From the NCBI GenBank assembly GCA_905235375.1, contig CAJOLH010000010.1:62001-126000 (forward strand): 64,000 bases of DNA. The letters run 5' to 3'. Shown piece after piece: positions 14,965 to 60,980 of the stretch. Positions within the stretch are counted from its first letter, which is position 1; each line of letters opens with the position of its first letter. A program made the position numbers and the translations under genes. This stretch comes from an uncultured Bacteroidales bacterium. Lineage in GTDB: Bacteria > Bacteroidota > Bacteroidia > Bacteroidales > UBA3663. The notes under the pieces were generated by a model, which was given only the letters and a program-made list of their open reading frames with translations, was not told the origin of the DNA and made no database searches.

Positions 14965-15768
14965 ATGAAGATTACCATCTTAGGAAGCGGCACCAGCATC
15001 GGCGTGCCCATGCCAACCTGCGACTGTGAGGTTTGTAAAAGCAATGACCCGCATGACAACCGTTTGCGTTGCAGTGCATTGGTACACACCGACGATGAGA
15101 AGGATATCCTGATCGATTGCGGTCCTGATTTTCGCCTTCAGGCCTTGCGTGCCGACATCAAGAAACTCGACGCACTCTTGCTCACCCACAATCATTTCGA
15201 CCATTGTTATGGCCTCGATGATTTACGCCCCTGGGCATATTGGACCCCTCTTCCGACATACGCTGACAAGGGAATGAGCCAGTCGTTGCTTACACGTTGG
15301 GATTATATCTTTGTGCATCAATATCCAGGCGTGCCTAAACTCGTGCTTCACACTGTACATCCAAGTCAGAATGATGTCTTCAAAGTTGGGGAAACAGAGG
15401 TGACTCCCATACGTTGCTATCATGGCGAACTGCCAATCTTAGGCTATCGAATAGGTGCCTTAGGATACATCACCGATTGTACGAAGATACACGAACGGGA
15501 TCTCTTGAAGCTCAGAGGAATCGACACGCTGATAATCGATGCCCTTCGTTGGAAAGAGCATCCCACGCATTACAGTGTGGCACAGGCAATGGTTATCGTG
15601 GAGTGTCTGAAGCCGCGCCAGACATTCTTTACCCACATGAGCCACGATATGGGTCTTCATGCCGACTTCGAACGGAGATTGAGCGGGGAACTCTCCAGAC
15701 TCTTCCCGCAGGAATTGCTCGATACGGTTCATTTAGCCTACGATCAGCAAGAAATAATAGTGAATTGA
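14965..15768 (+). CDS. PhnP-like metallo-beta-lactamase-fold hydrolase
   Basis: The 267-residue enzyme has the MBL-fold signature THNHFDH (74-80), the early GSGTSIGVP motif and the later metal ligands in YHGELP, YITDC and HMSHDMG. A Cys cluster C19-x-C21-x2-C24 near the N-terminus matches the structural zinc site of PhnP-type phosphodiesterases, which cleave cyclic ribose phosphates. No other phosphonate genes are nearby, so the role is more likely general phosphodiesterase activity. The stop codon is 2 bp before the miaA start, implying coupled expression with a tRNA-modification gene. Confidence 0.85.
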   Translation: MKITILGSGTSIGVPMPTCDCEVCKSNDPHDNRLRCSALVHTDDEKDILIDCGPDFRLQALRADIKKLDALLLTHNHFDHCYGLDDLRPWAYWTPLPTYADKGMSQSLLTRWDYIFVHQYPGVPKLVLHTVHPSQNDVFKVGETEVTPIRCYHGELPILGYRIGALGYITDCTKIHERDLLKLRGIDTLIIDALRWKEHPTHYSVAQAMVIVECLKPRQTFFTHMSHDMGLHADFERRLSGELSRLFPQELLDTVHLAYDQQEIIVN

Positions 15769-15770
15769 AG

Positions 15771-16724
15771 ATGATTACAATCGTAGGACCTACAGCCAGC
15801 GGCAAGACACGATTGGCCGTCGATGTCGCCTTGGCATACGATACCGAGGTGATATCTGCCGATTCGCGTCAGGTCTATCGCGACATGACCTTGGGCACGG
15901 GCAAGGACTTGGAGGATTACCTCGTGCGCGATGATGCCGGAAACATCGTCAGGCAGGTGAAGTGCCATCTTATCGACATTCGTGAGCCGGGTTACAAATA
16001 CTCCATTTACGAGTTTCAACGTGATTTCCATCGTGTCTATGACGATATGCTTAGTCGAGGACTTTTGCCTGTGATGTGTGGCGGTTCAGGTCTTTACGTC
16101 GAGTCGATATTGCGGGGCTACGAGATGCATGAGGTGCCTGAGAACGCCGAACTGCGGAAGCAGCTTGACGAAAAATCGTTGGAAGAACTCACCGAAATTC
16201 TCAAGACTTACAAGACGCTCCACAATCAGACCGACACAGACACTCGCAAACGTGCCATTCGCGAGATTGAGATCCGTGACTATTATCGCACACATGCCGA
16301 GCAACTTACTGGTTATCCTGCGGTCAAGAGCCTTGTAGTGGGTACCGAAGTGGATCGTGACGTGCGACGTGAACGTATTTCTCGGCGTCTGCGCGAACGG
16401 CTCGATGCAGGTATGGTGGATGAGGTGCGCCGTCTCTTGGACGAACGTCATATACCGCCAGAAGACCTGATCTACTATGGTCTTGAATATAAATATCTCA
16501 CTCTTTACCTCATTGGAGAACTCTCATACGATGAGATGTATCGCCAGCTCGAAATTGCTATCCATCAGTTTGCCAAACGACAGATGACGTGGTTTCGTGG
16601 CATGGAGCGTCGTGGCATACCTATTCATTGGATTCCCGCTGAGCTTTCGCGGGAAGAGAAGGTCGCTCGTGTGCAGGAATTATACAGATCTTTCATTTTT
16701 GCACAGAATGAGCTCAAAATATGA
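15771..16724 (+). CDS. miaA: tRNA dimethylallyltransferase
   Basis: MiaA transfers a dimethylallyl group to N6 of A37 in tRNAs reading UNN codons. The 318 residues match the family. Visible motifs are the P-loop IVGPTASGKT, the substrate-binding SADSRQVYRDM, the MCGGSGLYV motif, DTRKRAIREIE, and the C-terminal IHQFAKRQMTWFRG. The ATG at 15771 sits 2 bp after the preceding stop; the frame stays open further upstream but overlaps that gene. It is the last gene of its operon and is followed, 39 bp on, by array A. Confidence 0.95.
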   Translation: MITIVGPTASGKTRLAVDVALAYDTEVISADSRQVYRDMTLGTGKDLEDYLVRDDAGNIVRQVKCHLIDIREPGYKYSIYEFQRDFHRVYDDMLSRGLLPVMCGGSGLYVESILRGYEMHEVPENAELRKQLDEKSLEELTEILKTYKTLHNQTDTDTRKRAIREIEIRDYYRTHAEQLTGYPAVKSLVVGTEVDRDVRRERISRRLRERLDAGMVDEVRRLLDERHIPPEDLIYYGLEYKYLTLYLIGELSYDEMYRQLEIAIHQFAKRQMTWFRGMERRGIPIHWIPAELSREEKVARVQELYRSFIFAQNELKI

Positions 16725-16763
16725 CATCGGAGCATCAAATTGTGAATTAAGGAACTTCGATAG

Positions 16764-17300
16764 GAAATGGAGCGCCTACGTCCGTAGATGCTCCATTTCT
16801 GATAGAATATAGAACGTGAACGTCCGTAGGCGTCCCATTTCCGACTGCAAATGGAGCGTCAACGTCCCTACGCGTTCCATTTCCGATAGCAAATGGATCG
16901 TCAACGTCCCTACGCGTTCCATTTCCGATAGCAAATGGAGCGTCAACGTCCGTAGGCGTCCCATTTCCGACAGAAGATGGAGCGTCAACGTCCGTAGGCG
17001 TCCCATTTCCGACAGAAGATGGAGCGTCAACGTCCGTAGGCGTTCCATTTCCGACAGAAGATGGAGCGTCAACGTCCCTACGCGTTCCATTTCCGATAGC
17101 AAATGGATCGTGAACGTCCGTAGGCGTTCCATTTCCGATAGCAAATGGATCGTCAACGTCCCTACGCGTTCCATTTCCGATAGCAAATGGAGCGTCAACG
17201 TCCCTACGCGTTCCATTTCCGACAGCAAACGGATCGTCAACGTCCGTAGGCGTTCCATTTCCAATAGAATATGGAGCGCCTACGTTCGCAGACGCTCCAT
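16764..17300. repeat. Array A: 13 tandem 42-bp palindromic units
   Basis: Thirteen units repeat with an exact 42-bp period; the CCATTT landmark recurs at 16793, 16835, 16877 and so on to 17255, with a diverged last copy at 17297. Each unit has an outer inverted repeat (AAATGGAGCG with CGTTCCATTT), an inner core AACGTCC-NNNN-GCGTT, and an 8-base linker CCGATAGC or CCGACAGA. The central tetranucleotide is GTAG in units 2, 5, 6, 7, 9 and 12 and its reverse complement CTAC in units 3, 4, 8, 10 and 11. The end units are the most diverged, and unit 1 is the cleanest palindrome (CTACGTCCGTAG core). Both strands are open because 42 is a multiple of 3, but most differences between units change the amino acid, so it does not look coding. 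It fills the 664-bp gap between convergent miaA and the GH3 gene. Confidence 0.95.
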
Positions 17301-17388
17301 ATATTCCGTGAATGGATAAATTGCCTTATATGTCAACGTATTTCACCTTGTGGCAAGGCAGACTTGCGTTGATTCCGAAGTTTCAGTC

Positions 17389-18960
17389 CTAAATGGTGCG
17401 GTTCACGGCATTCATCGCAATCAATTCCTCCAAATAGCTGCGCGAATTGCTGAGACGCGGTATCTTGATCTGACCGCCCAGCTTGCCTTTCTTTTGTGTG
17501 AGCCAATCGGTGAAAAGTCCCTGCCGTGCCACGATGAGTTCCAATCGGTCGAGGAAGATGCCTTTGTAACGTTTGGCTTCATAGTCAGAGTTGACTTCCT
17601 GCAGGTGCTTGTCCAGACGTTCGACGAAATCCTCGATGTCGTCGGGCGCCTGCGAAAACTCGATGATCCACGTGTGCCGGGCTTTGGATCCATGGGTAAC
17701 ATCGCCTTTGTCAAGTACGGCAAAAGTGGGTGCAGCCGTATAGTCCAGAATGCGGGCTCCTGTTTCGGTACAGGTTTTTGCCAAGGCTTCGTCAGCGTTG
17801 CTCACCATCAGTTCCTCGCCAAAGGCGTTGATGAAGGCCTTTGTTCGACCTGTGATGATGAACTTGTAGGGATCGCGCTGCGTGAAGCGTACGGTGTCGC
17901 CGATGATGTAACGCCAAAGTCCTGGTGTCGAGATGACCATGGCGTAGTTCTTGCCCAATTCGATTTCGGTTAGAGGAACCGCATGCATCGTGGCGCTACC
18001 TTCCTCATACTCATCCATCGGTATGAATTCGTAGAAGACCTTGTTGTCGATGACAAGTTGCATATCGTGGCTGTCCCACGATGATTGAACACCAAAGAAA
18101 CCTTCCGAGGCATTGTAGGTCTCCAGATAGTGCATCTTGTCCGAAGGTATCAGCTGCTTGTATTGTTCGCGATAGGGAGTGAAGGCGATGCCTCCGTGGA
18201 AGAAACATTCAAGGTTGGGCCACACTTCGGTGATGTCCTTCTTCCCCGTTTCGGCAAGGATGTTTTTCAGCACACCCATCATCCACGATGGCACACCCGA
18301 CAAATTGGTCACGTTGACATCCTTGGTTGTTTGGCAGAGGGCTTTCAGTTTGGCTTCCCATTCGCTCATCAGTGCCACCTCCTTGCTTGGCGTGCGGATG
18401 AAGTTGACGGCAGACGTGACGTTCTGTATCAATGTGGCCGACAGGTCACCTGCATGGATGCCTTTGGGCAATGGCTCGTTAGAGAACGAACCGCCAAGAA
18501 TAAGTCCCTTGCCACTGAAAATCCTCGACTCGGGGTTGAGTGCCAGATAGATGACCATCGAGTCGGTTGCTCCACGGTAATGACAAAGCTTGAGCCCGTC
18601 ATCGGTCACGGGGATATATTTCGACTTGTCGGATGTCGTGCCCGAAGACTTGGCAAACCATCGGCAAAGCCCTGGCCAAAGCACATTCTTTTCGCCTTTG
18701 ACCATTCGCTCGATCCACACCTTTTGCTGGTCGTAGTTCGAGATGGGCACACGTTCAGCAAATAATCGGTAGTCGGCCTTCTCTCCGTTAAGCATCGCCG
18801 TGAAGTCATATTGCTGTCCGAAGTCAGTGCACTTCGCATGGCTGATAAGCCACACCAGTTGTTCCTGTTGCAGTTCGTGGGCATGAGTAGAATAGCGTTT
18901 GAGCTGCTTGTAACGCCGTTCAAAAGCCAGTTTGTATATGAGTCTTGTAAGATTTGCCAT
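17389..18960 (-). CDS. GH3 auxin-responsive promoter family protein (acyl-amido synthetase-like)
   Basis: The 523-residue product belongs to the GH3 family of the adenylate-forming superfamily. In plants GH3 enzymes conjugate amino acids to hormone carboxylates; bacterial members are common in Bacteroidota but their substrates are unknown. The ATP/AMP phosphate loop is clear in AKSSGTTSDKSKYIPVT, and later motifs include LETYNASEGFFG, GDTVRFT and a C-terminal GRTKAFINAFGEELM. It lies 56 bp downstream of topA on the same strand and is probably co-transcribed. Its 3' end faces array A. The protein is cytosolic, with no membrane segment. Confidence 0.9.
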   Translation of the reverse strand: MANLTRLIYKLAFERRYKQLKRYSTHAHELQQEQLVWLISHAKCTDFGQQYDFTAMLNGEKADYRLFAERVPISNYDQQKVWIERMVKGEKNVLWPGLCRWFAKSSGTTSDKSKYIPVTDDGLKLCHYRGATDSMVIYLALNPESRIFSGKGLILGGSFSNEPLPKGIHAGDLSATLIQNVTSAVNFIRTPSKEVALMSEWEAKLKALCQTTKDVNVTNLSGVPSWMMGVLKNILAETGKKDITEVWPNLECFFHGGIAFTPYREQYKQLIPSDKMHYLETYNASEGFFGVQSSWDSHDMQLVIDNKVFYEFIPMDEYEEGSATMHAVPLTEIELGKNYAMVISTPGLWRYIIGDTVRFTQRDPYKFIITGRTKAFINAFGEELMVSNADEALAKTCTETGARILDYTAAPTFAVLDKGDVTHGSKARHTWIIEFSQAPDDIEDFVERLDKHLQEVNSDYEAKRYKGIFLDRLELIVARQGLFTDWLTQKKGKLGGQIKIPRLSNSRSYLEELIAMNAVNRTI

Positions 18961-41283: not shown

Positions 41284-41730
41284 ACTCTGTCGGCCGACAG
41301 AAAGATTCCGCATTTTGAACAAGTACTCTGACAGCCGACAGGATGCTTTATCCAGTAGGAGCAAGCACTTTGTTGCACGTCAGAATGCTTTATCAAGGAG
41401 GAAATTGTACTCTGTCGGTCATCAGAGTATTCTATCCAATCGAGCAAGCACTCTGTCGGCCGTCAGAATGTTCTATCCAATCGAGTAAGCACTTTGACGG
41501 CCATCACGATGCTCTATCCTGTAGGAGCAAGCACTTTGTCGCGCGTCAGAATGCTTTATCAAGGAGGAAATTGTACTCTGTTGGCCATCACGATGCTCTA
41601 TCCTGTTGGCGCAAGCACTTTGACGGCCATCACGATGCTCTATCCTGTTGGCGCAAGCACTCTGACGGCCATCACGATGCTTTCGCAAAATGAGCAAGTA
41701 CTCTGTCGCGCGTCAGAGTGCTATATAACG
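41284..41730. repeat. Array B: 11 tandem 41-42-bp palindromic units
   Basis: Units start (ACTYTG) at 41284, 41325, 41367, 41409, 41450, 41491, 41533, 41575, 41617, 41659 and 41700. Each contains a 26-bp near-palindrome whose ideal form is AGCACTCTGACGG joined to its reverse complement, with centres such as CGGCCG, CGCGCG or CGGCCA. A linker of about 16 bp follows and recurs in a few versions (for example TATCCTGTAGGAGCA and TATCAAGGAGGAAAT). Four of the ten intervals are 41 and six are 42, which breaks any reading frame, so the array is not coding. It sits between GH18 and the pckA promoter. The remainder of the gap, 41731-41867, is AT-rich with no feature that I see. Confidence 0.93.
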
Positions 41731-59657: not shown

Positions 59658-60980
59658 ATGAAATTCAAGCAAGTTCCGGTTCTTCTGCTCACCGGTTATT
59701 TGGGCAGTGGTAAGACGACGCTTCTCAACCGTATTCTGTCCAACGAAAAGGGCATTCGGTTCGCTGTTATTGTCAATGATATCGGAGAGGTGAATATTGA
59801 TGCCGATCTAATTCAAAAGGGCGGTATCGTGGGCCAAGGCGATGACTCCCTTGTGGCTTTGCAGAATGGATGCATCTGCTGCACCCTTAAGATGGACCTC
59901 ATTCAGCAGCTCACCGATTTGGTCAACCAGCGTCGTTTCGACTATATCGTGATTGAGGCCTCGGGCGTTTGCGAGCCTGGACCAATTGCACAGACAATTT
60001 GTTCTATTCCAAGTGTGGTGTCCGAAGATGCGTTGAGAGGCGGAATCCCTGTCCTCGATTGCATCACCACCGTGGTCGATGCACTTCGCATGAAGGATGA
60101 GTTCCAAAGCGGCGAGTCGCTCACACGCACTAATCTTGACGAGGATGACATCGAGAATCTGATTATCCAACAGGTGGAATTCTGCAATATGATCTTGCTC
60201 AATAAGGCCTCAGAGGTAAGCAAGGAGGACCTGAGCCGATTGCGTGACATCATCCGTGCTTTGCAGCCTAAGGCAAAGATTGTGGAGTGCGATTATTGCG
60301 ACGTACCGCTTGAGCAGCTGATCAATACTAAAATGTTCGATTTCGATTCTGTAGCCACTTCAGCCACCTGGATTCAGAAGGTCGAAGGTGAACTTGATGA
60401 AGATGCTGAGATTCACGAGCACCATCACGACGATGACGATGATGACCACGACCATCACCACCACCATCACGATGATGACGACGACGATGATGACCACAAC
60501 CATCACCACCATCACGAACACGATGACGATGATGACGACGATGATGAAGAACACGAACATCATCATCACCATCACCACCACCATCATCATGATGGGGAAG
60601 GAGAGGCTGAAGAGTATGGCATAGGAACCTACGTTTATTATGCCCGCCAGCCCATCATCTTGGGTCTCTTCGATGACTTTGTGGCTCGTCGTTGGCCAAA
60701 GAACATCATCCGCGCTAAGGGTATTTGCTATTTTTCCGACGAGCAGGATGTTTGTTACGTGTTCGAGCAGGCTGGTCGTCAGACTACCGTACGCAATGCC
60801 GGCAGCTGGTTCGCCACCATGCCAAAGCGCGAGCTCGAAATGATGTTGGAGCGCGATGCCAATCTGCGGCGCGATTGGGACGAAGTCTATGGCGACCGTA
60901 TGCAAAAGATTGTATTTATCGGGCAGAATCTCGATAAGGCTCTTATCAAGAAAGAGCTGGATGCCTGTCTGGTTCAATAG
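59658..60980 (+). CDS. G3E-family GTPase (CobW/ZNG1-like metallochaperone) with His/Asp-rich region
   Basis: The 440-residue GTPase has Walker A TGYLGSGKTTLLNR, the G3E-specific metal motif NGCICCTLK near residue 75, and a CobW C-terminal domain (ICYFSDEQDVCYVFEQAG, WFATMPKRELE). Between them, about residues 250-313, lies an extreme low-complexity region of alternating His and Asp runs, with about 30 histidines. Such regions bind and store zinc, nickel or cobalt in CobW-type chaperones. The enzyme probably delivers a metal to a client; no B12 or nickel-enzyme gene is adjacent. It directly follows dapA. Confidence 0.92.
   Translation: MKFKQVPVLLLTGYLGSGKTTLLNRILSNEKGIRFAVIVNDIGEVNIDADLIQKGGIVGQGDDSLVALQNGCICCTLKMDLIQQLTDLVNQRRFDYIVIEASGVCEPGPIAQTICSIPSVVSEDALRGGIPVLDCITTVVDALRMKDEFQSGESLTRTNLDEDDIENLIIQQVEFCNMILLNKASEVSKEDLSRLRDIIRALQPKAKIVECDYCDVPLEQLINTKMFDFDSVATSATWIQKVEGELDEDAEIHEHHHDDDDDDHDHHHHHHDDDDDDDDHNHHHHHEHDDDDDDDDEEHEHHHHHHHHHHHDGEGEAEEYGIGTYVYYARQPIILGLFDDFVARRWPKNIIRAKGICYFSDEQDVCYVFEQAGRQTTVRNAGSWFATMPKRELEMMLERDANLRRDWDEVYGDRMQKIVFIGQNLDKALIKKELDACLVQ

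What the first reader, a model, noticed from the sequence alone, without database searches (positions are those of the whole stretch)
16764..17300. Array A: thirteen exact 42-bp palindromic units between convergent genes
Thirteen tandem units with an exact 42-bp period each contain a nested inverted repeat able to form a hairpin. Most differences between units would be amino-acid changes if translated, and there is no start signal, so the unit seems selected as DNA or RNA. 42 bp equals four turns of B-DNA, so every palindrome centre would lie on the same face of the helix, as expected for a protein-binding array. It is not a CRISPR, iteron or rho-independent terminator that I know.
Basis: partly seen in the sequence, partly recalled or inferred. 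Interest (0 to 1): 0.75.

Follow-up and report, generated by a model that had tools for sequence, protein, structure and literature searches.

The report
Palindromic repeat arrays with fixed pitch
The thirteen 42-bp repeats are one of at least 40 non-coding, palindromic repeat arrays that move around and are copied between gene gaps in this rumen bacterium's chromosome, always with the same 41-42 bp spacing even when the repeat sequence is completely different, which points to a spacing rule set by an unknown protein or copying mechanism.

Summary
In detail: 13 palindromic units, 12 spacings of exactly 42 bp, between convergent miaA and a GH3-family gene. It is neither unique nor coding. The genome holds at least 40 such arrays (about 8 of this type A). 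They use at least four palindromic unit types (A-D; B and C interleave within arrays) on one 41/42-bp pitch. None lies in a gene; convergent gaps are enriched (24/65, p=2e-7). Five sister species carry the same types. Array positions are partly ancestral, partly recent. At the window site three sisters have one ordinary terminator, one has no gap, and one has an unrelated 41-bp array. Units are homogenised within a genome across loci (88% identity), not by site across species (76%). Spacing changes are about tenfold rarer than nearby indel rates predict. Small samples of two same-genus genomes lacking A and B also carry 41/42-bp arrays of unrelated sequence; four other families show none. I read it as a mobile, non-autonomous palindromic minisatellite resembling BIMEs and P. 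gingivalis BrickBuilt/PgRS, with no general RAYT. Its pitch is probably set by a protein footprint or the copying machinery; that step is inferred.

The parts
16760..17305 (+). Array A: 13 tandem 42-bp type A units (core AAATGGAGCGTCAACGTCC[CTAC/GTAG]GCGTTCCATTT plus an 8-bp spacer)
16765..16798 (+). First unit, a near-perfect palindrome that differs from the homogenised inner units
   Evidence: terminal units lag behind inner ones across the family
17269..17302 (+). Last unit, a near-perfect palindrome that differs from the inner units
17303..17345 (+). Short tail outside the array (ATTCCGTGAATGGATAAATTGCC...), weakly like the shared right-hand tail GTGCTATATACGAATGAGATG of other A arrays; tentative
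   Evidence: tail shared by L070, L071, L073; likeness of this copy seen by eye only
15765..16724 (+). miaA (tRNA dimethylallyltransferase), convergent left neighbour
17389..18960 (-). GH3-family gene, convergent right neighbour
41290..41726 (-). Second array in the window, type B (AAGCACTCTGACGGCCGACAGAGTGCTT plus spacer), mixed 42/41-bp spacing

Best explanation
Array A is one copy of a non-coding, non-autonomous palindromic minisatellite element that lives in gene gaps, mainly downstream of genes, in one clade of rumen Bacteroidales. Shown: arrays of about 8-14 palindromic units arise at new gaps, persist at old ones, and have their units copied between loci of one genome, so that units resemble others in the same genome more than the array at the same site in a sister species. 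Shown: the 41/42-bp pitch is kept while unit sequences change, across unit types that look unrelated. Inferred: the pitch (about four DNA turns, with an outward and an inward dyad in each unit) is the footprint of a repeating protein unit on double-stranded DNA, either the enzyme that copies or recombines the units or a nucleoid-type protein that coats them. Preference for convergent gaps would then reflect tolerance there, with or without a benefit such as insulating converging transcription.
For: Family and spread: about 8 A arrays and at least 40 arrays in all in G000. Gain at sites that are empty or occupied differently in sisters: miaA-GH3 and L070, L084, L099. Ancestral sites shared by up to five species. 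Homogenisation: same genome, different site 0.88; same site, different genome 0.76; background 0.77; terminal units 0.79 against inner 0.94. Pitch: spacings 42 (496), 41 (155) and multiples, 5 odd of 745, against an indel-to-substitution ratio of 0.34 in neighbouring gaps. Pitch without sequence: B and C interleaved in one array; type E at 41 bp only at the G006 miaA-GH3 site; unrelated 41/42-bp arrays in G005 and G012 and none in 380 kb of four other families. Location: 0 arrays in genes, convergent 24/65, divergent depleted. DNA rather than one RNA strand: no covariation above shuffles in A, equal G.T and A.C mismatches in B, C and D, mirror-symmetric conservation in B, C and D.
Against: No binding protein, recombinase or transposase has been identified, and no target-site duplication was found. 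One pitch serving unrelated sequences in the same genome argues against a single sequence-specific binder. 41-bp arrays do not keep one helical face exactly. Mirror symmetry of conservation is weak for type A (r 0.19-0.45). The genus-wide pitch rests on about seven arrays in 337 kb of two genomes, whose palindromes are weaker.
Confidence: 0.6

Rival explanations
1. Pure neutral or selfish minisatellite: palindromes expand by replication slippage and unequal recombination and settle where harmless. The pitch is only inherited from one ancestral array whose sequence drifted into types A-E and the G005/G012 types.
For: Terminal units lag behind inner units, the classic sign of unequal exchange; B/C higher-order periods of 84 and 126 bp; spacers of A-D share a CGAT-like core when set side by side (by eye), so common descent is possible; no function shown.
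Against: Ordinary drift should bring in indels at about a third of the substitution rate, yet spacing deviations are about tenfold fewer than expected. Arrays are found at sites empty in sisters, so they move as well as expand in place.
Confidence: 0.25
2. Bidirectional transcription terminator or mRNA 3'-end array: each unit forms an RNA hairpin that stops or protects converging transcripts.
For: Convergent enrichment; strong folding on both strands; at the window site three sister species have one ordinary bidirectional terminator where G000 has the array, and G000 lacks a T-tract terminator there.
Against: Array ends have no excess of T runs (9/167 against 6.5% at random). Other arrays lie beyond an ordinary terminator that is still present (L070; L101 and L041). 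No covariation in A and no strand-specific G.U signature in B, C, D.
Confidence: 0.1
3. REP/BIME elements of the known kind, moved by a RAYT (Y1 transposase).
For: Intergenic palindromes in tandem with alternating half-sites, species-specific and at gene 3' ends, as for BIME-2 (PMC2817692).
Against: Y1_Tnp was not found in G000, G003, G004 or G006, and the single copies in G007 and G011 are not flanked by A-D units. The GTAG/CGTC letters of type A sit inside the palindrome, not at its foot; B, C and D do not show them.
Confidence: 0.04
4. The array encodes a 14-residue repeat protein.
For: 42 bp is 14 codons and both strands are open here.
Against: No ATG start; sister A arrays run at 41 bp and B arrays mix 41 and 42 bp, so the frame is lost; Pfam hits to the translations have no stretch that passes on its own.
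Confidence: 0.01

Closest known systems
BrickBuilt and 464/PgRS MITEs of Porphyromonas gingivalis (PMC4596501)
   Same: Bacteroidales; tandem minisatellite (23 nt; 41 nt for PgRS) at some 10-20 intergenic loci; variable copy number; leader and tail sequences; species-restricted; about 0.4% of the genome; predicted stem loops
   Different: Here units are palindromes of at least four types on one 41/42-bp pitch, mixed within arrays and homogenised between loci; at least 40 arrays; tails short and shared by only some arrays; no clear terminal inverted repeats outside the units and no transposase match found
REP/BIME, in particular BIME-2 of E. coli (PMC2817692; PMC3733652)
   Same: Intergenic palindromes in tandem, bound by proteins (gyrase, IHF) in E. 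coli; species-specific turnover
   Different: No general RAYT in the clade; rigid 41/42-bp pitch across unrelated sequences; no GTAG/CGTC foot on B, C or D
sopC / parS_F centromere of the F plasmid (PMC6238139)
   Same: Twelve tandem 43-bp repeats with a 16-bp inverted repeat, a very similar architecture and array size
   Different: One site on its replicon, one sequence; here dozens of chromosomal arrays of several sequences and no ParB link tested
CRISPR arrays
   Same: Regular direct repeats with palindromic character
   Different: No unique spacers: the 8-14 bp between palindromes is itself repeated

Membership tests
REP/BIME (RAYT-associated) | Short palindromes, extragenic, many copies | tested here: met
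REP/BIME (RAYT-associated) | Cognate RAYT (Y1_Tnp, PF01797) in the genome | tested here: not met
   none in G000, G003, G004, G006; one each in G007 and G011 without flanking units; genomes are 77-90% complete
REP/BIME (RAYT-associated) | GTAG or CGTC at the palindrome foot | tested here: not met
   type A carries CGTC/GTAG letters only inside the palindrome; B, C, D do not
BrickBuilt / PgRS-like minisatellite MITE | Tandem minisatellite at many intergenic loci | tested here: met
BrickBuilt / PgRS-like minisatellite MITE | Conserved leader and tail segments | tested here: inconclusive
   short tails (25-91 bp) shared by some non-orthologous arrays only
BrickBuilt / PgRS-like minisatellite MITE | Terminal inverted repeats and target-site duplication | tested here: inconclusive
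   ends such as TATATAGC(A/G)CG seen at L070, but they belong to palindromic units; no duplication recognised at L070, L084, L099
BrickBuilt / PgRS-like minisatellite MITE | Sequence homology of the unit to BrickBuilt or PgRS | not tested
CRISPR | Identical repeats with unique spacers | tested here: not met
   spacers repeat with the unit
Intrinsic terminator | G+C hairpin followed by a T tract | tested here: not met
sopC-like centromere | Bound by a cognate ParB and needed for partition | not testable with these tools
   needs binding and segregation experiments
Known structured RNA (Rfam) | Match at the gathering score | tested here: not met
   no match in the window; only sub-threshold microRNA hits at E 0.26-0.36

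The most novel reading that the evidence does not exclude
The genus carries a sequence-independent DNA scaffold: arrays of dyads at a fixed 41/42-bp (four-turn) pitch, read or made by a protein that measures spacing rather than sequence. The palindrome sequences can then be replaced wholesale between species, and even mixed within one array, while the pitch and the placement between genes stay.
Probability: 0.3. Interest if true: 0.85.

Novelty: new variant of a known kind. Interest (0 to 1): 0.6.

Why it matters
Intergenic palindromic repeats are known from many bacteria, but their copying machinery and any use to the host are mostly unknown outside RAYT systems. Here one genus offers several unrelated repeat sequences under one length rule, with sites that are empty, newly filled or anciently filled in sister species. 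This is a natural experiment for asking what sets repeat pitch, what copies units between loci, and whether converging genes need such arrays. The arrays also break short-read assemblies (several end at contig ends), so they matter for reading rumen genomes.

Tried and rejected
Coding repeat: rejected (41-bp arrays and mixed 41/42 spacing lose frame). Rfam RNA: none. RAYT/REP: Y1 transposase not found in most of the clade. Phage origin: exact patterns for A, B, C and D found nothing in IMG/VR. Intrinsic terminator: no T-run excess at array ends. RNA pairing: no covariation beyond shuffles for A, no strand-specific G.U signature in B, C, D. A-to-B type swap at one site (G003 L159 against G000 L101): not claimed, the left flanks are only 64% identical. 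Literature searches for 42-bp or palindromic arrays in Bacteroidales found only BrickBuilt/PgRS and REP papers.

Full report
WHAT IS THERE. TRF finds 16758-17300 with period 42, 12.9 copies and no indels. In register it is 13 units (16760-17305) with all 12 spacings equal to 42, between miaA (15765-16724 +) and a GH3-family gene (17389-18960 -), which converge. The unit holds a palindrome of about 34 bp. Its most regular form across species is AAATGGAACGTCTACG-TT-CGTAGACGTTCCATTT, my reading. The array folds better than shuffles on both strands, has no Rfam match at gathering score and no T-tract terminator beyond chance.

A FAMILY, NOT A SINGLE LOCUS. The type A unit occurs 76 times in the genome at up to 3 mismatches, in about 8 arrays; two pairs of contig ends are halves of one array, because sister genomes join them. 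Array B of the window (41290-41726) led to a second family with dozens of arrays. In 1.02 Mb of stretches, most chosen because they carry arrays, periods of 42 bp and its multiples dominate. Four palindromic unit types share the pitch: A; B (AAGCACTCTGWCGSSCGWCAGAGTGCTT); C (GCATACCCTTTCTTGGCCAAGATTGGGTATGC); and D (CATGTCCGCTAACGTTCGCTGGAGGACATG). B and C units are interleaved in the same arrays with 84 or 126 bp higher-order periods. Complete arrays in G000 are mostly 390-565 bp, about 9-14 units; singles and doublets also exist. In 260 kb of stretches that were not chosen for arrays there was one (type D).

WHERE THEY SIT. None of the arrays lies in a predicted gene. Of 65 with both neighbours known, 24 lie in convergent gaps against 43 of 423 other gaps of 100 bp or more (p=2e-7), and 6 in divergent gaps (depleted, p=0.009). 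The gene finder is a simple codon-usage one of my own, and orthologous sites in different species are not independent, so the p-values are optimistic.

SISTER SPECIES. A and B occur in the same six of 15 genomes of the genus (G000, G003, G004, G006, G007, G011) and in none of 45 genomes of other families of the order. The miaA-GH3 pair is convergent in all five sisters. Between the genes, G003, G004 and G011 have one ordinary two-way terminator, G007 has almost no gap, and G006 has a terminator hairpin plus about eight 41-bp units of an unrelated palindrome (type E, TGCAATCTCGCGCTGCGATTGCA) that occurs nowhere else in 13 genus genomes searched. So this site has gained two unrelated arrays of nearly the same pitch in two lineages. 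Three more G000 arrays (L070, L084, L099) sit at gaps that are empty in sisters (for L084 the G003 site could not be read because the flanks lie on two contigs). Other sites are old: the C70/C96 site holds a type A array in five species, and the L118 site a B/C array in four further species.

HOW UNITS EVOLVE. Consensus identity of A arrays is 0.88 between different sites of one genome, 0.76 between the same site in different genomes and 0.77 for different sites in different genomes. Terminal units match their array consensus at 0.79, inner units at 0.94. Units are therefore copied between loci of a genome, and edges escape. Some non-orthologous arrays share short tails outside the array, which suggests that whole elements move.

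PITCH. Over 745 spacings, 496 are 42, 155 are 41, nearly all the rest are multiples, and 5 are odd. Within arrays 55 of 625 spacings differ from the array's own mode, nearly all 41 against 42. Internal units carry about 1,850 substitutions; at the indel-to-substitution ratio of 0.34 measured in nearby gaps one would expect several hundred spacing changes. The 0.34 was measured with cheap gap costs and may be high, and my unit finder is ungapped, so 'about tenfold' is a rough figure. In untargeted stretches of two same-genus genomes that lack A and B, 41- and 42-bp arrays of unrelated sequence turned up (G005 L225, L229; G012 L236, L237, L240, L242), all intergenic, against none in 380 kb of four other families. 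Their dyads are shorter or weaker: only two of six reach significance.

DNA OR RNA. For type A, pair covariation does not exceed shuffles. In B, C and D, G.T and A.C mismatches are about equally common, so no single strand is favoured as RNA; type A has more G.T than A.C, but these look like a few inherited changes. Conservation is mirror-symmetric across the dyad in C (r about 0.9) and D (0.8), less in B (0.4-0.6), weak in A (0.2-0.45). This fits double-stranded dyads better than selected hairpins.

MECHANISM, SHOWN AND INFERRED. Shown: non-coding, intergenic, gained at new sites, persistent at old ones, homogenised between loci, pitch kept. Inferred: a protein footprint or the copying enzyme sets the pitch. 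No general RAYT is present, and no other enzyme has been tied to the arrays. The architecture resembles sopC of plasmid F (twelve 43-bp repeats with an inverted repeat, PMC6238139) and PgRS/BrickBuilt of P. gingivalis (PMC4596501). I do not claim membership of either.

LIMITS. All genomes are drafts, most of them well below complete, and arrays end many contigs, so copy numbers are lower bounds. Sampling of G000 was guided by hits. No experiment on binding, transcription or fitness could be run.

Noticed in passing
window 41290-41726: Second 42/41-bp palindromic array (type B) between two co-directional genes; part of the same phenomenon.
   Followed up: yes
L138:2500-2940 (G006, miaA-GH3 gap): Unique 41-bp palindromic array (type E) plus a long terminator-like hairpin at the site orthologous to the finding; unit found nowhere else in 13 genus genomes.
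   Followed up: partly
L124:3525-9643 (G000:C18): About 78 copies of a 48-bp repeat with spacers of about 30 bp (GTTGTGACTTGCTTGAGAATTTAGTATATTTGCGTAGGCAATAACAAC), which looks like a CRISPR array.
   Followed up: no
L087:7409-9214 (G000:C10:22-24 kb): 73-74 bp period with a CTTCGAGACCATCATCCATTACAACAAGGATTAAGAC repeat and differing spacers; looks like a second CRISPR array, just beside a type B array.
   Followed up: no
L190 (G007) and L179 (G004), right flanks of the arrays: About 2.3-2.8 kb with 100% DNA identity between two species beside palindromic arrays, against 83-95% elsewhere; recent transfer or contamination.
   Followed up: no
L071:9541-10388 and L077:3991-4187 (G000): Other tandem repeats (73-74 bp TCTACGGACTTCAGGGACTTTGGGG type; 9-bp CTCAAACCC type, also in L131), so this genome collects several repeat kinds.
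   Followed up: no
window 60413-60541: 33/48-bp tandem repeat CACGACCACCACCACCACCATCACGATGATGAC, probably a His/Asp-rich coding repeat.
   Followed up: no
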